Shown in pieces: positions 1 through 61,303 of a stretch of 61,303 nucleotides of DNA. The stretch comes from Pseudanabaena cinerea FACHB-1277 (GTDB taxonomy: Bacteria; Cyanobacteriota; Cyanobacteriia; Pseudanabaenales; Pseudanabaenaceae). Numbering within the stretch: the stretch's first letter is position 1; each line of letters starts with the position of its first letter. Both the position numbers and the translations under genes were made by a program. The notes beneath the pieces are model-generated. The model was not told where the DNA came from. It was given only the letters and a program-made list of their open reading frames with translations, and ran no database searches. The stretch covers positions 1 through 61,303 of the forward strand of contig NZ_JACJPY010000016.1 in assembly GCF_014696345.1 (NCBI RefSeq). Reading direction: 5' to 3'.

Positions 1-25
1 CTAGATAGGTCATACTTACTATGAC

Positions 26-1969
26 TTGACCTATCTTTTTTATCTTAAATCCTCAAATCCCCATCTACTCATACTTCCCATATCTTTTGTCGCCCCGTCA
101 GGTTTAGAATATCGGTACTTACGCGAGAATAAAGGCGATTTAAAGTTACTGAGTACTCCAGATTTAGAGGTTTTGCCTCCGCAATTTGAGGCAATTATTT
201 TTGTATCTGCAAAAGAAAGTAATCTATTGCCCACAGGCATTACCGCCAAGCTCAAACGCCAGGTTAGTTTGCTCGATATATTCCAAGCGATCGCGACCAC
301 CCTTGATGCACCAGCCATTACCCAAGCGATTAATCCTGATGAACAGTTTCAGAAAGTGAGAGAAGCTTTGAGCGCCCAATCTACACTTTTGATCATTGAC
401 AACCTAGAGACTATTGAAGACAAAGAGAAGATTATTAGCTTTCTCAATGACTTGCCAAATACAACCAAAGCAGTGATCACTAGTCGCGAACTGCAAGTTA
501 TTTATGCGCCATTACGTTTGGGGGCATTATCAGAAATGGATAGTTTGGAACTAATTGTCCAACAAGCTGATGAAAAGGGACTCGATCTTAGTGATGCCGA
601 AATATTGCAACTTTATCAACGTTTTGGTGGTGTACCTGTGGCATTGATTTATGCGATCGGGCAGTTGGCTAATGGTTTCCCCCTTGCTAATCTGATTGAT
701 CCAGCCATCCAATTATTTGCCGATATTGGTAGATTTTGTTTTGAAAATTCTATTCAATCTATTTCCCATAGACCTGCCTATCAGTTGCTATTGGCGATCG
801 CGTTATTTCATCAAAGTCCCAGACGTGAGGCATTAATTTCTGTGGCAGGGCTAGAAGCAAATGATGTCATCGCCAGCGAAAGTTTAACAAAATTGGAGAG
901 GCTTTCTTTGGTCTTTCAAGAAGGAGAGCGCTATGGAATGTCCGCGCTGACCCGTGAATATGCGCTTCAAGAATTGCAAAGGCAAAGTGAAAAGGAAGCA
1001 GAAATGCGCGATCGCTGGATAAATTGGCATTTGGAATTCTCTCAGAAATATGGTGGCAAGGATTGGGGCGACTGGCATTCACAGTACGACTATCTTGAAG
1101 CCGAATGGGAAAATCTGGCTTCAGTTCTCGATTGGTGCGCGATCCGAGATCGCTATATCGATGGGCGCGACATTGGCGTTAGCCTTGCCTATTACCTCTA
1201 TCTATATGGACACTGGGATCGCGGCATGGCAATTTTAGGCTGGGTGATCGAGGCGGGTGAACGTCGTGAAGATTGGCTGACGGTTGTCCAGTTAAAGTCG
1301 ATGGGTGGTTGGATTATGCTAATGATGGGACAACTTGACTATGCTGAACATCATTTGTCCTATGGATGGCAACTTAGCAATGACTATGGCTCAATGTTTA
1401 CGCGCTGTGAGATTGCCGATAATCTGGCAATTCTGTATATTCGCAAAGGCGATTACCCAACAGCACGTCAATGGAGTGAAACCTGCGATCGCCTCACCTT
1501 AGAACTTGAAGATCCTGATCGCACACGTTTCCAGATTTATGGACTATGTACCGCAGCCGATCTATTCTATCAAGAGCAAAATTATGTCAAAGCAAAGGAA
1601 CTCTATCAAGCGGCTCTAGATTTAGCTCTAAAAATTCAATGGCAGCGCTACACTAATTACACTAGAGGCTGGCTCGCCGATATTGCCATCATTGAAGGTG
1701 ATTTCCCGAAAGCCGAAAAATTGTTAATGACAGGCTTTATCGCCGCCGAACGCAATCATGATCGCCAGAGAATCGCCTTTTTTGAGCGGTGTTATGCCAG
1801 ACTCGAATTTGCTAAAGGTAATTTTGAGCGATCACAGGAATGGGGAATTAAGGCAAAAGAAAGTTTCTATCGATTAGGCATGAAATCAGAAATGGCACAA
1901 ATGGAAGAATTTAATGCGTTACAATTTAATGCGTTAAATAAGCTGAACTACGGGCATATCCTCCAATAG
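26..1969 (+). CDS. STAND/NB-ARC-like NTPase with TPR tail, 5' truncated or decayed
   Basis: The reading frame is open from base 5 and the only early start is a TTG at 26. From about residue 50 it reads like an NB-ARC/STAND ATPase: an IIFVSAKES strand, a Walker B-like LLIIDNLE near residue 120, a sensor-like VITSRE near 150, then a winged-helix-like stretch (about 250-320) and helical TPR-like repeats to the end. The Walker A P-loop that should precede IIFVSAKES is absent, and the first 30 or so residues do not look like this family. Either the true gene starts upstream of the window with a frameshift, or the 5' end is lost. STAND proteins are ATP-dependent signalling or defence switches with TPRs as sensors. 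Its 3' end overlaps the convergent Hsp70-like gene by 36 bases. Substrate and role are unknown. Confidence 0.6.
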   Translation: MTYLFYLKSSNPHLLILPISFVAPSGLEYRYLRENKGDLKLLSTPDLEVLPPQFEAIIFVSAKESNLLPTGITAKLKRQVSLLDIFQAIATTLDAPAITQAINPDEQFQKVREALSAQSTLLIIDNLETIEDKEKIISFLNDLPNTTKAVITSRELQVIYAPLRLGALSEMDSLELIVQQADEKGLDLSDAEILQLYQRFGGVPVALIYAIGQLANGFPLANLIDPAIQLFADIGRFCFENSIQSISHRPAYQLLLAIALFHQSPRREALISVAGLEANDVIASESLTKLERLSLVFQEGERYGMSALTREYALQELQRQSEKEAEMRDRWINWHLEFSQKYGGKDWGDWHSQYDYLEAEWENLASVLDWCAIRDRYIDGRDIGVSLAYYLYLYGHWDRGMAILGWVIEAGERREDWLTVVQLKSMGGWIMLMMGQLDYAEHHLSYGWQLSNDYGSMFTRCEIADNLAILYIRKGDYPTARQWSETCDRLTLELEDPDRTRFQIYGLCTAADLFYQEQNYVKAKELYQAALDLALKIQWQRYTNYTRGWLADIAIIEGDFPKAEKLLMTGFIAAERNHDRQRIAFFERCYARLEFAKGNFERSQEWGIKAKESFYRLGMKSEMAQMEEFNALQFNALNKLNYGHILQ

Positions 1970-5479: not shown

Positions 5480-6157
5480 CTATGAAAGTTGGCTCAAGCG
5501 ATAACCAACACCATGAATGGTCTCAATCAAATTATGAGGAGCGCCAGCGCCCTTCAGCTTATTGCGTAAGCTCTTGATTGTGGCATTGATAGTATCTTCC
5601 CTAGGTGGATCATTCAGTGACCAAACATGTTCCACGATCGTGATCCGTTTTAGCACTTGGCGACCATGGTGGAGTAACAACTCTAAAATGTTGTATTCCT
5701 TAGGAGTTAAATGCACTGATTGACCAGTGTAAGAAACTTCATGCATCCCTGGGTCTAATTGCAGTTCGCCCCATCGCAGGACAGTGGGTTCTGCAACCTT
5801 CGCACGGCGAGACAATGCACGGATACGAGCCATCAGCTCAGGCGGATCAATGGGCTTAACGAGATAATCGTCAGCCCCTGCATCCAAGCCCTGAACCTTG
5901 TCAGAGCTCATATCCAGAGCCGTCACCATCAAAATAGGGATATTGTTGCTATGCGCCCTTAGACGACGGCATAAATTAATGCCATCGAGTTTAGGTAGCA
6001 TCACATCTAGCAAGATCAGGTTGTAATCATCAGATTGAGATTTTTCCCAACCCTCTTCCCCGTCTCGCGCAATATCCACAACGCAATGCTGACCAGTTAG
6101 CACTTCTGCTAATGTGTCAGCCAAATTGGCATCATCTTCTACAAGTAGAATTCTCAT
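5480..6157 (-). CDS. OmpR/PhoB-family response regulator
   Basis: A receiver domain (residues 1-120) starts MRILLVEDD, with phosphoacceptor Asp in LILLDVMLP, the conserved Thr/Ser switch in ILMVTAL and Lys in DYLVKPI. A winged-helix output domain follows (about 130-223), ending IETIHGVGYRLS, the typical OmpR recognition-helix and wing sequence. I chose the ATG at 6157 because MRILLVEDD is the usual start; an in-frame ATG at 6208 would add 17 residues unrelated to the family. It should bind DNA when phosphorylated. No cognate kinase lies next to it. The subfamily resembles other cyanobacterial ManR-like regulators, but I cannot assign the regulon from sequence. Confidence 0.9.
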   Translation of the reverse strand: MRILLVEDDANLADTLAEVLTGQHCVVDIARDGEEGWEKSQSDDYNLILLDVMLPKLDGINLCRRLRAHSNNIPILMVTALDMSSDKVQGLDAGADDYLVKPIDPPELMARIRALSRRAKVAEPTVLRWGELQLDPGMHEVSYTGQSVHLTPKEYNILELLLHHGRQVLKRITIVEHVWSLNDPPREDTINATIKSLRNKLKGAGAPHNLIETIHGVGYRLSQLS

Positions 6158-6639: not shown

Positions 6640-7950
6640 ATGATTGCGAACTTATCTGCTTTTAAAACCACCGCATCCCAAGACATTTTTGCCAAGGCTA
6701 AGCATTTGATGCCTGGTGGGGTGAGTTCACCAGTCCGCGCCTTTAAGTCTGTTGGTGGTGAGCCGATTGTGTTCGATCGCGTCAATGGTGCTTATGCTTG
6801 GGACATCGATGGCAATAAATATATTGATTACATCGGCTCATGGGGACCAGCGATCGTGGGGCATTCCCATCCTGAAGTCATCGAAGCATTACACAAAGCC
6901 CTCGAAAAAGGGACTAGCTTTGGTGCGCCTTGTGTACTCGAGAACCAACTAGCAGAAATGGTGATCGAAGCAGTACCTAGTGTGGAGATGGTGCGCTTTG
7001 TTAACTCAGGTACAGAGGCTTGTATGTCCGTATTACGGCTGATGCGAGCTTTTACAGGTCGAGACAAGATCATCAAGTTTGAGGGCTGCTATCACGGTCA
7101 TGCGGATATGTTTCTCGTTAAGGCAGGCTCTGGGGTGGCCACCCTTGGGCTGCCCGACTCTCCTGGTGTACCTAAATCGACAACTGCCAATACCCTCACT
7201 GCGCCCTATAACGATCTTGATGCGGTCAAAGCCTTATTTGCCGAAAATCCTGATCAAATTTCGGGCGTAATTATTGAGCCAGTGGTGGGTAATGCGGGTT
7301 GCATTGTGCCTAAGGAAGGATTTTTGCAAGGGCTTAAGGATCTCTGCCATCAGTATGGTGCTTTGCTAGTATTTGATGAAGTCATGACAGGATTCCGTCT
7401 GTCCTATGGTGGCGCACAGGCGAGATTTGGGATCACACCTGACCTAACGACCATGGGCAAGGTGATCGGTGGCGGCTTGCCCGTAGGAGCCTATGGTGGG
7501 CGCAAGGACATCATGGCAATGGTTGCCCCCGCAGGTCCCATGTATCAGGCAGGTACTTTGTCGGGCAATCCCTTGGCGATGACCGCAGGGATTAAGACCC
7601 TAGAAATTCTCAAGCGTGCGGGTTCCTATGAATATCTAGAGCAAATTACCAAGAAGTTAGCTGATGGGATGCTGGCGATCGCCCATGAGACAGGACATAA
7701 GGCTACAGGCAATTTGATTGGTGCCATGTTTGGAATGTTTTTTACCGAGCAGCAGGTTTATGACTACGAAGATGCAAAAACCAGTGACACCAGCAAATTT
7801 GCCAAATTTCATCGTGGAATGCTAGAGCATGGGGTTTATCTTGCCCCATCACAGTTTGAAGCAGGATTTACCTCTCTTGCCCATACTGATGCCGATGTTG
7901 CCGCCACCCTAGAGGCAGCAAGAGCCGTTCTAGCTCAAATCCCCGCCTAG
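6640..7950 (+). CDS. hemL: Glutamate-1-semialdehyde 2,1-aminomutase
   Basis: The 436-residue product has the full length of the family. It converts glutamate-1-semialdehyde to 5-aminolevulinate, the first committed tetrapyrrole precursor for chlorophyll, haem and phycobilins, in the cytoplasm. It is a fold-type I PLP enzyme. Visible signatures are [18 protein letters not shown] at the N-terminus, the [18 protein letters not shown] cofactor loop, YHGHAD, the FDEVMTGFR Asp contacting PLP, and [18 protein letters not shown] with the Schiff-base Lys. The ATG at 6640 lies directly before the conserved region. The gene is monocistronic, with inverted repeats downstream. Confidence 0.97.
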
Positions 7951-58516: not shown

Positions 58517-58554
58517 TAAGAGTTGCAGCATTCAGCGCTGCAACTCTTATTTTG
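58517..58554 (+). terminator. Intrinsic terminator of kaiABC
   Basis: TAAGAGTTGCAGC/GCTGCAACTCTTA is a perfect 13-base stem with a 7-base loop, followed by TTTT. Confidence 0.9.
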
Positions 58555-58876
58555 GGTTTTGATTTGTCCTAATACAAGTGCCTATAGCTCTATCCTTGTC
58601 ATAACATTTCGTGATTATTTTTCGTATCCTAGAAAAGTGATCGTCTGTTAATCAAACATCAAAGCAAAGTGATCGACCAATCAATTAAATCGCCGGCAGC
58701 TTGTTTCGCAATTACAGCCTGTTGAGTTTTTGTGGGATACACCGAAAACAGACCGTACAGGCTATTTGTATGGTTTACGATGTGCTACATATTTCTTCAA
58801 CAGGCTGTATCAACCTAAAAACAGTTGAAACCTTGATATATACTAGAGTTCAAAAATAGTAATTTAGGTAAAATCA
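58555..58876. other. AT-rich junction with an inverted repeat
   Basis: This 322-base stretch has no gene. ACAGCCTGTTGA (58714-58725) is exactly inverted as TCAACAGGCTGT (58797-58808), enclosing 71 bases. It marks the change from the core-like kai region to an AT-rich block, and may be a mobile-element scar or regulatory structure. Confidence 0.5.
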
Positions 58877-60280
58877 ATGCAAAAAATTATTATCAAAAAT
58901 TTCGGTGCTGTCGAATATGCCGAAATTGAAATCAAGAAAATTTTAGTTTTAATTGGCGAACAAGCTAGTGGTAAAAGCACTATTGCTAAACTTATTTATT
59001 TTTTTAAATCACTGAAAAACGACTTAAATATTCAACTTCGTCAAGATACAGACAGAAATTATTTTGATACAGCTTCAGATTTAATATTTCCCATCAGAGA
59101 AAAGTTTTATGATTTCTTTGGTTCTACATATCACTTACCAAATTTTGAAATAACATTTCATTATAATGTCGAGAATGACAGGTATATAAGATTAACATTA
59201 AACTCAGACAGAAAAGTTGAGGCTTATCTAAGTTTTATAGATCAAACTTTTAAGGATTCAGCCAGTACGATCAAAAGACTTTTGCGACAACAGCGAAGTA
59301 TCAATATAGATAGATTCTATGAACAAATAGCCTATGATCGCGATGAATCTAGTCTTTCTCAAAGGTTAAGTTCATTACTAAATGGTGTTTTTTCTAGCAA
59401 TCAGACAGACTCACTGTTTATTATTGCTAGTAGAAATGTAACTGTTGGTTACTCCAATACATTTGAAAAGTATCTGTTTTCAGACACTCAAAATAATTTG
59501 GAAAATAGGAGAGCTTTTAAAAGAAAGGAACAAACTATTGATGAAACTTTGATGCTAAATTTCATCGAAAGAACATCACAGATCAAAAAATTCTTTACAA
59601 AATATATGGGTTTTGAGGGTTTGATTGAAAGCTTTGAAGAAGATCGAATTAAAAAAGAAAAACTATATCAAGTCAAAACAAAGATAGAGGAAATTTTGAA
59701 AGGAAAATATTTAATAGATAGTCAGGGAGAAAAAATTGTATTTGATCAAGCAAGAACAGGCTATGTGTATCTTCATAATTCTTCTTCAGGACAACAGGAA
59801 TCAATTAGAATTCTTCAAGACATCTTTATTAATATTCTTGAGCGCTCGAAAATATTTAGAGTTCTAGAAGAACCAGAAGCTCATTTATTTCCAGTTGCTC
59901 AAAAGCAGTTAATTGAGTTGTTATCTTTAATGGTAAATCAAGACGAAGATAATCAAATAATTATTACAACTCATAGCCCTTATGTGCTTACAGTTTTCAA
60001 TAATTTGCTATTTGCCAAGCGTGTTGTAAATAAAAATCCATCGACCGAGGCTGAAGTATCTGAAATAATACCTCAAGAATTTTGGCTAAATGCAAATGAT
60101 TTTTCAGCATACTCTTTAGGCAATCACTTCATGGGAGAAAAAACTCAATATTGTGAATCTATATTTAATGTTGAGAAAGGAACTATTAGGCAAAATTATT
60201 TGGATACAGTATCCGAGATGCTAGGTGGTGCTTTTAATTCTTTGTATAGTATTCATGCTAAGAGCTTTGGAATAAGATGA
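58877..60280 (+). CDS. AAA15/OLD-like ABC-type ATPase, putative defence component
   Basis: The 467-residue protein starts MQKIIIKNFGAVEYAEIEIK. It has Walker A GEQASGKSTIAKLIYFF (about residue 28), a signature-like SSSGQQESIRILQDIF, Walker B FRVLEEPEAHLFPVAQKQ, and a His switch in IIITTHSPYVLT. This is the ABC-type ATPase of overcoming-lysogenisation-defect and AAA15 proteins, without a TOPRIM nuclease. The gene is much more AT-rich than its upstream neighbours (many TTA, ATA and AAA codons), a sign of transfer. It overlaps the next gene by ATGA, so the two proteins probably work as a pair. Confidence 0.85.
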   Translation: MQKIIIKNFGAVEYAEIEIKKILVLIGEQASGKSTIAKLIYFFKSLKNDLNIQLRQDTDRNYFDTASDLIFPIREKFYDFFGSTYHLPNFEITFHYNVENDRYIRLTLNSDRKVEAYLSFIDQTFKDSASTIKRLLRQQRSINIDRFYEQIAYDRDESSLSQRLSSLLNGVFSSNQTDSLFIIASRNVTVGYSNTFEKYLFSDTQNNLENRRAFKRKEQTIDETLMLNFIERTSQIKKFFTKYMGFEGLIESFEEDRIKKEKLYQVKTKIEEILKGKYLIDSQGEKIVFDQARTGYVYLHNSSSGQQESIRILQDIFINILERSKIFRVLEEPEAHLFPVAQKQLIELLSLMVNQDEDNQIIITTHSPYVLTVFNNLLFAKRVVNKNPSTEAEVSEIIPQEFWLNANDFSAYSLGNHFMGEKTQYCESIFNVEKGTIRQNYLDTVSEMLGGAFNSLYSIHAKSFGIR

Positions 60281-60882
60281 GCAAATTTGAGAACATGAAA
60301 CTTCATCTGTCACTTAATTTTGATAGGATGAACAATTTTTTAGAAATAGATAGTCGCGATGAGGTTTGTATAATTGATTTCCAAGGTCAGTCATTTATAA
60401 TTATTAGTATTCAACTCGTAGACAACACTTTTACAATTCGACAAAATGGTATAGATACTACTCATCTAGACTTTGATGACTCTAAAGTATTCAAGATAAC
60501 TAACGCTAACCTAATCGGATTTATCCCAATTGACGGTAGAAATGGGCTTTTAGGATTTGGAAAATCCCATTGTGATTTTGTCTTTTTTGATGAGAACAAC
60601 TTTTGTTTTGTTGAATTCAAATTGAATGCAACTAGTCTAAGGGAAGGATCAATTAGCAATAATAGAAGGAAGGCTATAGATCAACTAAAAAATACAATTG
60701 CCTTATTCAACGCTAAGCTTGACAGAAACTATCAAAATTTAGTACTAGAAGCATATGTCTGTACCCCTGAAATTTACCCAAGGGAAAATGCAAGTTGGCA
60801 AGAGTTAGCAAAAGATTTCTTGGAAGAAGTCGGGTTTCAAATTTTTGAAAAAATTGAAAAATCTGTATTTAAATTAGATTAA
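60277..60882 (+). CDS. PD-(D/E)XK nuclease-like partner of the ATPase
   Basis: The 201-residue protein has a nuclease-like core: GKSHCDFVFFDENNFCFVEF followed by KLN (about residues 95-118), where Asp and ExK fit a PD-(D/E)XK active site. A helix (RRKAIDQLKNTIALFNAKLD) follows, as in that fold. The N-terminal half is beta-rich and unassigned. The start overlaps the ATPase stop by ATGA, strong evidence of a functional pair, as in ATP-regulated abortive-infection systems. I do not recognise the family by name, and it is not the DUF4435 nuclease of PARIS or the HNH of Septu as far as I can see. Confidence 0.65.
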   Translation: MSKFENMKLHLSLNFDRMNNFLEIDSRDEVCIIDFQGQSFIIISIQLVDNTFTIRQNGIDTTHLDFDDSKVFKITNANLIGFIPIDGRNGLLGFGKSHCDFVFFDENNFCFVEFKLNATSLREGSISNNRRKAIDQLKNTIALFNAKLDRNYQNLVLEAYVCTPEIYPRENASWQELAKDFLEEVGFQIFEKIEKSVFKLD

Positions 60883-60910
60883 TATAATTAAATATAATAA
60901 ATATTAAGCG

Positions 60911-61234
60911 ATGATAAATGCTATTGAACTTGAAAGTTTTGGCATAATTGAAAAACTTGTCTGGCAAAAATTAGGCAAGATAAATCTTGTCATTGGGAAT
61001 AATGGCACAGGTAAGACTTTCTTGCTTAAATCTTTGTATACCGCCATGCGAACAATTGAAGAATTTAAGCGTGGTGATGATCAAAGAAATATTAATCAAA
61101 TACTTTTTGATAAACTATATTGGACATTTCAGACGGAAGAAATTGGTGATTTAGTAAGAAAAGGTTCAGAGCATCCACTGTCATTCAAGATATATTTAAA
61201 CGCTGAGGGGGTGACAAAGACATCTAAAACGTAG
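60911..61234 (+). pseudogene. Truncated second AAA ATPase
   Basis: The frame opens like an AAA15 ATPase: MINAIELESFGIIEKLVWQK, then Walker A LVIGNNGTGKTFLLKSLYTA and a conserved region to FKIYLN. It stops after 107 residues, with none of the signature, Walker B or His-switch parts that should follow over 250 or more residues. The last ten residues (EGVTKTSKT) do not look like the family, so a frameshift or an insertion near 61200 is likely. It lies 28 bases after the nuclease-like gene on the same strand and shares its AT-rich composition. Confidence 0.6.
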
Positions 61235-61303
61235 CCGTGACAAGCTGCATAGCCCTCTTACCTCGTTGATAGTAGGTTAACTTATTGGGAGCTAGTTTCA
61301 ATA
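61235..61303. other. Window end, unassigned
   Basis: These 69 bases after the truncated ATPase contain no recognisable ORF. They may be the end of an inserted element, but no transposase or clear terminal repeat is visible. Confidence 0.3.

What the first reader, a model, noticed from the sequence alone, without database searches (positions are those of the whole stretch)
58877..61234. AT-rich ATPase-nuclease-ATPase cluster, probable phage-defence system
An ABC-type AAA15 ATPase overlaps by ATGA with a small PD-(D/E)XK-like protein, followed by a second AAA15-type ATPase that is cut short. Composition differs sharply from the kai region. ATPase plus small nuclease pairs are the plan of several anti-phage systems, but two ATPases flanking this nuclease type do not match a system I can name.
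Basis: partly seen in the sequence, partly recalled or inferred. Interest (0 to 1): 0.7.

Follow-up and report, generated by a model that had tools for sequence, protein, structure and literature searches.

The report
Two adjacent ATPase-nuclease defence pairs
Next to the clock genes of a cyanobacterium lie one intact and one transposon-broken pair of ATPase and nuclease genes that are probably antiviral, and in relatives of the intact pair the presumed sensing part of the ATPase has been swapped between strains.

Summary
The genes are real but form two two-gene modules, not one three-gene system. Module 1 (intact, 58877-60882): an OLD/PtuA/AriA-type ABC ATPase (P1) overlapping by ATGA a PD-(D/E)XK nuclease-like protein (P2). 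It matches PADLOC's untested candidate family PDC-M29 and has the plan of the tested systems PD-T4-4 and WonAB. Module 2: gene 3 is the first 97 codons of a HEC-02A ATPase, cut by an insertion sequence at 61203 (the contig end). Its remainder and HEC-02B lie on contig C137, joined by a 9-bp target duplication found at 1 of 31 right ends. A P1 piece precedes P2 in 27 of 28 other distinct loci; HEC-02 is in none. The pair is patchy (15 of 388 class genomes) and sits at different housekeeping sites by lineage. New observation: in 9 of 11 close genome pairs from three lineages, codons 61-300 of P1, between Walker A and the ABC signature, are only 43-58% identical, while the P1 ends, P2 and a neighbouring control gene are mostly 80-98% identical. 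I read this as an exchangeable sensor arm, and the pair as an abortive-infection-like sensor ATPase plus nuclease effector. Defence activity is inferred, not shown.

The parts
58877..60280 (+). P1: OLD/PtuA/AriA-type ABC ATPase (AAA_15), 467 aa, PDC-M29A-like
58955..58981 (+). Walker A of P1 (GEQASGKST, K33)
   Evidence: conserved in alignments A2 and A5
59057..59776 (+). P1 codons 61-300, hypervariable arm between Walker A helix and ABC signature; presumed sensor
   Evidence: segment divergence among relatives; sensor role inferred
59783..59800 (+). ABC signature of P1 (SSGQQE)
   Evidence: invariant in 16 of 16 aligned sequences
59855..59884 (+). Walker B of P1 (E331, E332)
59966..59983 (+). 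H-loop of P1 (TTHSPY, H366)
60277..60882 (+). P2: PD-(D/E)XK nuclease-like protein, 201 aa, PDC-M29B-like; starts in an ATGA overlap with P1
60574..60621 (+). Putative active site of P2: D100 ... E113-x-K115
   Evidence: invariant in 15 of 15 and 18 of 18 aligned sequences
60911..61202 (+). First 97 codons of a HEC-02A ATPase, second module, broken by the IS
   Evidence: PDLC04214 positions 1-100; rest at contig C137:27053-27766(-)
61194..61202 (+). 9-bp target site duplication, also beside the other IS end on C137
   Evidence: 1 of 31 right ends matches
61203..61303 (+). Left end of the insertion sequence; runs to the contig end

Best explanation
P1-P2 is a two-component, chromosomal anti-phage pair that works like WonAB, PD-T4-4 or PARIS. 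P1, an ABC ATPase dimer, senses a phage-derived trigger through a variable arm. Sensing changes the ATPase and licenses the PD-(D/E)XK protein P2 to cut nucleic acid, so that infection aborts. Shown: gene structure, intact ATPase and nuclease motifs, tight operon linkage, purifying selection, patchy occurrence, divergent arms in otherwise similar copies. Inferred: sensing, dimer and complex formation, cleavage and its target, abortive outcome. The adjacent HEC-02 pair is a separate module of similar plan, interrupted by an insertion sequence.
For: P1 matches AAA_15 and defence ATPase profiles: AriA 2.4e-45, PDC-M29A 1.3e-27, PD-T4-4_A 4.8e-21. P2 matches PDC-M29B 2.8e-8; all 18 P2 and all 19 P1 family members scanned match PDC-M29B/A. 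Walker A, signature, Walker B, H-loop and R186 are conserved in P1, and D100/E113/K115 in P2. P1 model (pLDDT 84.9): best structures PtuA Z 17.1 (rmsd 4.7, 285 aligned) and AriA Z 15.6 (4.9, 282). P2 model (pLDDT 93): weak matches, the top ones mostly nucleases: Card1 Z 6.7, FokI 6.3, Can2 6.0, Avs4 5.4, HamA 4.8. A P1 piece lies upstream of P2 in 27 of 28 distinct loci; ATGA overlap in 21 of 23 intact pairs. dN/dS of P1 0.11-0.28 in 10 of 10 pairs and of P2 0.12-0.39 in the 9 of 10 that could be computed. Patchy: 15 of 388 class genomes, 7 of 26 of the genus. Outside cyanobacteria two of three loci have a defence-like neighbour: type III restriction enzyme in L106 (2e-75), AriA/PtuA-like ATPase in L103 (about 3e-20). 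WonAB: both genes, ATPase and nuclease residues needed, abortive outcome.
Against: No activity data. The PDC-M29B match is modest, and P2 has no significant Pfam or PDB sequence match; the P2 fold matches are all under Z 8 and include unrelated GTPases, and Foldseek gives none at E 0.001 or better. P2 has no match in the plasmid or phage collections. In cyanobacteria the pair sits at stable housekeeping sites, and 5 of 5 cyanobacterial neighbour proteins scanned match no PADLOC family at 1e-5, which is less typical of defence genes. Some OLD-family ATPases serve the cell cycle (Cran1, abstract).
Confidence: 0.72

Rival explanations
1. A host-maintenance ATPase-nuclease (DNA repair, replication or cell-cycle role) that happens to share the OLD/SMC-like fold.
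For: Stable chromosomal sites beside psbO, ribF/moxR/secA or an alpha/beta-hydrolase gene; SMC and Rad50 heads follow PtuA and AriA closely in the structure list; the archaeal OLD ATPase Cran1 has such a role (abstract).
Against: Absent from 373 of 388 genomes of the class at E 0.001; visibly decaying copies (L064/L102 without P1, L097 P1 deletion fused to P2, L065 split P2); divergent arms.
Confidence: 0.13
2. A restriction-like system that directly cuts incoming phage or plasmid DNA without aborting the cell, the P1 arm reading a DNA feature.
For: The P2 fold matches include restriction enzymes; specificity-subunit-like variation of the P1 arm; a type III restriction enzyme gene stands two genes upstream of the pair in L106.
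Against: No DNA-modification gene was recognised beside the cyanobacterial pairs by eye (rRNA-methyltransferase-like genes are near some), but neighbours were not profiled for this; the similar WonAB does not restrict entering DNA.
Confidence: 0.12
3. P1, P2 and gene 3 form one three-component system.
For: Adjacency in the window.
Against: HEC-02 pieces in none of 14 + 21 loci with P2; gene 3 matches HEC-02A at 3.1e-42 and has its own HEC-02B partner (3.6e-60) downstream.
Confidence: 0.03

Closest known systems
PDC-M29 (PADLOC phage defence candidate, two-gene)
   Same: Both profiles match P1 and P2 and all scanned relatives.
   Different: Window P2 is distant from the model (2.8e-8, over residues 95-189); PDC-M29 is, as far as I know, untested, and no paper in the searched library names it.
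WonAB and PD-T4-4 (OLD-ABC ATPase + PD-(D/E)xK nuclease)
   Same: Two-gene plan, ABC motifs, nuclease partner (sections 7 and 8 of PMC12137116; passages of PMC10952713).
   Different: Direct alignment to WonAB not made; no PD-T4-4_B match to P2 listed.
PARIS (AriA/AriB)
   Same: AAA_15 ATPase closest to AriA by profile (2.4e-45) and structurally similar, Z 15.6.
   Different: AriB is a DUF4435 protein with a Toprim match (passages of PMC9122126); P2 has no DUF4435 match.
HEC-02 (PADLOC Hma-embedded candidate)
   Same: Gene 3 plus its C137 remainder match HEC-02A; the next gene matches HEC-02B.
   Different: Interrupted by an insertion sequence, so probably inactive here.

Membership tests
PDC-M29 | ATPase matching PDC-M29A | tested here: met
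   1.3e-27; family search in own genome 2.4e-14, 0 of 14 control genomes. PADLOC's own cut-off not available.
PDC-M29 | Small partner matching PDC-M29B, adjacent | tested here: met
   2.8e-8, the only family below 0.02 in the scan to E 1; 18 of 18 scanned members
PARIS | AAA_15 or AAA_21 ATPase | tested here: met
   98.5 bits against a cut-off of 32.1
PARIS | DUF4435 partner AriB | tested here: not met
   Pfam scan of P2 to E 1 gives only RE_MamI at 0.037
WonAB/PD-T4-4 plan | OLD-type ABC ATPase with Walker A, signature, Walker B, H-loop | tested here: met
WonAB/PD-T4-4 plan | PD-(D/E)xK partner nuclease | tested here: met
   Motif D100, E113, K115 invariant; fold matches agree but are weak, Z under 8; activity not tested
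WonAB/PD-T4-4 plan | Partner matching PD-T4-4_B | tested here: inconclusive
   No such row for P2; I did not check that the library holds a B model
WonAB/PD-T4-4 plan | Phage protection by abortive infection | not testable with these tools
   needs a phage challenge
Gabija/OLD | ATPase fused to a Toprim domain | tested here: not met
   P1 is 467 aa and its Pfam list to E 1 holds no Toprim family
HEC-02 | HEC-02A and HEC-02B side by side | tested here: met
   3.1e-42, 6e-113 and 3.6e-60
HEC-02 | Intact ATPase gene | tested here: not met
   IS at 61203 with 9-bp duplication

The most novel reading that the evidence does not exclude
In this ATPase-nuclease family the arm of the ATPase between Walker A and the ABC signature is a recombination cassette: divergent arm alleles are exchanged between strains inside an otherwise conserved ATPase, nuclease and chromosomal site, much as target-recognition domains are exchanged in restriction specificity subunits. 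That would make the arm the phage-sensing part and its allele set a readable record of what local cyanophages present.
Probability: 0.55. Interest if true: 0.7.

Novelty: new member of a known kind. Interest (0 to 1): 0.5.

Why it matters
What OLD-type ATPases sense is, to my knowledge, mostly open. A natural set of arm alleles in an otherwise similar backbone, in bloom-forming cyanobacteria, would let one map trigger recognition by arm swaps. The case also shows that an apparent three-gene system can be two modules, one broken by a transposon at a contig end.

Tried and rejected
Rejected: a three-component system; PARIS membership (no DUF4435); Gabija/OLD (no Toprim); carriage on known plasmids or phages (P2 no match). 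Sequence search of PDB with the P2 profile gave only chance-level matches. Foldseek with the P2 model gave no match at E 0.001 or better; only the VIA second look put nucleases at the top, with GTPases and other folds further down. PHROGs: P1 matches five families of unknown function, P2 none.

Literature: no paper names PDC-M29 or holds HEC-02 together with 'defence'; one search combining hypervariable, ABC ATPase, nuclease, anti-phage, sensor and recombination gave only a restriction-modification review (listing seen only), so the statement that arm exchange is unreported rests on that single search. The preprint that defines HEC and PDC (named in a reference list) was not read. Cran1 (PMC12796447) and the OLD review (PMC10568477): abstract and outline only. 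PMC12988326 and PMC11514479: passages only.

Limits of the arm result. The comparison pairs are not independent, so the Spearman p-values are indicative only; NG86 dS values in the arm are high and some near saturation. Two of eleven close pairs (L061/L105, L054/L058) share the same arm; in L054/L058 the whole of P1 is more alike (98-100%) than moxR (dS 0.13). In L053/L055 and L099/L100 the C-terminal part is also raised (dS 0.67 and 0.65), and in L054/L059 both P1 ends are (dS 0.70 and 0.59). L053/L055 counts as close by psbO (dS 0.20) but not by the second neighbour gene tested, for which no pair had dS of 0.3 or less. At the psbO site only the P2 correlation nears significance (n 10, p 0.054). 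dN/dS over a recombining gene is only a rough guide. The tree of P1 is poorly resolved (7 of 22 branches starred), so the foreign origin of the window's pair rests on identities. Rows dropped: L065 left out of P2 comparisons (P2 split); L103, L104, L106 and L107 not used in the segment test; L131 compared with 6 loci and with all ribF and moxR carriers held; partial copies found (L127-L129) and the distant L130 not used; L106 and L107 left out of the P1 conservation profile and L106 out of that of P2.

Full report
What is there. Downstream of kaiC (ends 58500) GC falls from about 0.45 to 0.30. P1 (58877-60280, 467 aa) and P2 (60277-60882, 201 aa) overlap by ATGA; a third ORF starts at 60911. 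P1 is an AAA_15 ATPase (8.1e-28).

The third gene is broken, not just cut by the window. From 61203 to the contig end the sequence equals that at 26 other places of the genome, many of them at contig starts or known contig ends, i.e. an insertion sequence end. HEC-02A profile positions 1-100 match the window and positions 95-335 match contig C137:27053-27766 (2.9e-112). On C137 the gene remainder follows the other IS end and the nine bases ATTTAAACG, the same nine that precede the IS in the window. Of 31 right ends examined, 1 has these nine bases, the C137 one. Downstream on C137 lies a 217-aa gene matching HEC-02B (3.6e-60). So module 2 is HEC-02A/HEC-02B, interrupted; its 3' piece lacks the Walker A region and is probably inactive (inference). 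The same IS also bounds the window at bases 1-101.

P1-P2 is a real two-gene unit. Besides the window, P2 relatives were found in 14 genomes of the class (15 of 388 including the own genome; 7 of 26 of the genus) and in 21 loci of named genomes (Dolichospermum, Anabaena, Aphanizomenon, Sphaerospermopsis, Trichormus, Microcystis, Pseudanabaena, an uncultured cyanobacterium and a Nostocales MAG, one Caenarcaniphilales and one Bacteroidetes MAG, Prevotella, Phocaeicola). Seven of the 21 are the same contigs by length, leaving 28 distinct loci. A P1 piece lies directly upstream on the same strand in 27 of 28; the exception is L064/L102. Of the 27, L097 keeps only a P1 remnant fused to P2, L101 starts inside P1 at the contig start and is broken, L066 has a short P1, and L065 a split P2. 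In 21 of the 23 intact pairs I measured (the window included) the overlap is four bases; L057 has a gap of 136 and L106 of 6. HEC-02 pieces were found in none of the 14 + 21 loci (own proteins as queries, flanks of at most about 8 kb). The own genome holds two further ATPase plus small-nuclease pairs, on C142 and C169, whose small proteins also match PDC-M29B (1.4e-9, 6.4e-8).

Family. PADLOC places P1 nearest AriA (2.4e-45), then PDC-M29A (1.3e-27) and PD-T4-4_A (4.8e-21), and P2 nearest PDC-M29B (2.8e-8). Over the aligned family, 19 of 19 P1 and 18 of 18 P2 match PDC-M29A/B. P1 keeps Walker A, the SSGQQE signature, Walker B, TTHSPY and an invariant R186; P2 keeps D100, E113, K115 and A133/Q136/T140/I141. 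The P1 model (pLDDT 84.9, pTM 0.87) is closest to retron/Septu PtuA (Z 17.1, rmsd 4.7, 285 aligned) and PARIS AriA (Z 15.6, rmsd 4.9, 282), ahead of SMC heads (Z 14.6) by a modest margin. The P2 model (pLDDT 93, pTM 0.90) has only weak matches, headed by nucleases (Card1 Z 6.7, FokI 6.3, Can2 6.0) with unrelated rows among them. Together with the motif I call P2 a PD-(D/E)XK nuclease; the catalytic assignment is inferred.

Known systems. WonAB (PMC12137116, sections 7 and 8 read) is an OLD-type ABC ATPase with a PD-(D/E)xK partner. Both genes are needed; mutations of ATPase residues (K34, R182, E300, H333) and of nuclease K71 abolish protection, and infection is aborted after the start of phage DNA replication. 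Its authors link it to PD-T4-4 and to a larger family of ATPase sensors paired with nucleases. P1 has K33, R186, E331/E332 and H366 in the corresponding motifs, and P2 K115 (my correspondence, not an alignment to WonAB). PD-T4-4 is listed with PF13175 and a PD-(D/E)XK nuclease (passages of PMC10952713). PARIS was detected as AAA_15/AAA_21 plus DUF4435 (passages of PMC9122126); P2 lacks DUF4435. The plan is therefore known; this is a cyanobacterial branch of a candidate family.

Where it sits. In the genus the pair lies near psbO (PF01716 tested on L053; the others by the same start sequence) in 6 loci, in L062 with transposase-like ORFs between. In Nostocales it lies beside ribF and/or a MoxR-type ATPase gene, in several also near secA; in Microcystis beside an alpha/beta-hydrolase gene that I read as metX. 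Of ten neighbour proteins scanned against PADLOC, the 5 cyanobacterial ones match nothing at 1e-5, and 2 of the 5 others do: a type III restriction enzyme in L106 and an AriA/PtuA-like ATPase in L103. In 17 of the 19 congener loci shown, kaiC is followed by a gene on the opposite strand that looks like the pentapeptide-repeat gene tested in L070, so the window's pair stands where congeners have another gene. The window's P1 is 74-78% identical in its C-terminal part to Nostocales copies and 67-72% to congeners, and 66% overall to its nearest relative, a Nostocales MAG. This points to acquisition from outside the genus; the tree itself is unresolved there.

The arm. Along P1 the mean pairwise identity per 20 residues is 0.82-0.95 over residues 1-40, 0.33-0.68 over 61-300, and 0.59-0.93 from 301 on. 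I compared segments of P1, P2 and a neighbouring housekeeping gene between related copies. Eleven pairs have a neighbour gene (ribF, moxR, psbO or the metX-like gene) with dS of at most 0.3. In 9 of 11 the arm (codons 61-300) is 43-58% identical with dS 0.53-1.45, while the neighbour gene is 89-98% identical (dS 0.07-0.29), the first 45 residues 89-98%, the C-terminal part 88-97% (81% in L053/L055), and P2 78-98% in the 8 pairs where I compared it. The other two (L061/L105, L054/L058) share the same arm. Conversely L060 and L089 differ in ribF (dS 0.47) but share an arm (dS 0.04). Sliding windows show the drop beginning just after Walker A and ending near the signature in L090/L093, L089/L105 and L053/L055. 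Over 55 Nostocales pairs, ribF identity correlates with the P1 N end (0.59), C end (0.60) and P2 (0.62) but not with the arm (-0.01). Over the 15 psbO-site pairs the values are 0.35, -0.15, 0.62 (n 10) and -0.37, none significant. The pairs are not independent. Synonymous divergence rises together with amino-acid divergence, so I read this as replacement of arm alleles rather than fast evolution in place (inference). It recurs in three lineages at three kinds of site.

Mechanism, with what is shown and inferred. Shown: an ATPase and nuclease-like operon with intact motifs under purifying selection (P1 dN/dS 0.11-0.28 in 10 pairs), patchy, with decaying copies and divergent arms. Inferred: the arm senses a phage product, the ATPase dimer couples it to P2, P2 cuts nucleic acid, the cell aborts infection. 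The main doubt is that no activity is known to me for PDC-M29 and that the cyanobacterial pairs sit at quiet chromosomal sites.

Verdict. A known kind of two-gene defence candidate, next to a second, broken candidate pair. The exchangeable arm is the part worth following.

Noticed in passing
contig C137 of the same genome, L037:5776-9731: A diversity-generating retroelement lies about 1.7 kb downstream of HEC-02B: reverse transcriptase (PF00078), bAvd, template repeat 7441-7575, variable repeat 7753-7887 at the 3' end of a 657-aa gene with an FGE-sulfatase domain. 13 of 15 template/variable differences are at template adenines; a partial third copy lies at 5667-5719.
   Followed up: partly
window 1-101 and 61203-61303: The whole contig is bounded by the two ends of one insertion sequence. 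27 left-end and 31 right-end matches, nearly all at contig ends where I know the contig length, would account for some 58 of the 358 contig ends of this assembly.
   Followed up: partly
window 58519-58593 and 58710-58810: Two short repeats between kaiC and P1 that recur across genomes of the genus, the first in many copies.
   Followed up: no
G000:C142:18081-19837 and C169:6801-8669: Two further ATPase plus small PD-(D/E)XK-like pairs of the same broad family in the own genome.
   Followed up: partly
L097:7905-8585 (Anabaena lutea FACHB-196): In-frame deletion fusing the first 35 or so residues of P1 (through Walker A) to P2, making one 226-aa ORF.
   Followed up: no
L068 (congener, G038:C179): A second, inverted kaiB copy lies near the contig start beside the kai cluster; may be an assembly edge effect.
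   Followed up: no
   Followed up: partly
L054 and L058 (two genomes of family f32): P1 is 98-100% identical although the neighbouring moxR differs at dS 0.13, as if the whole ATPase region had moved recently.
   Followed up: no
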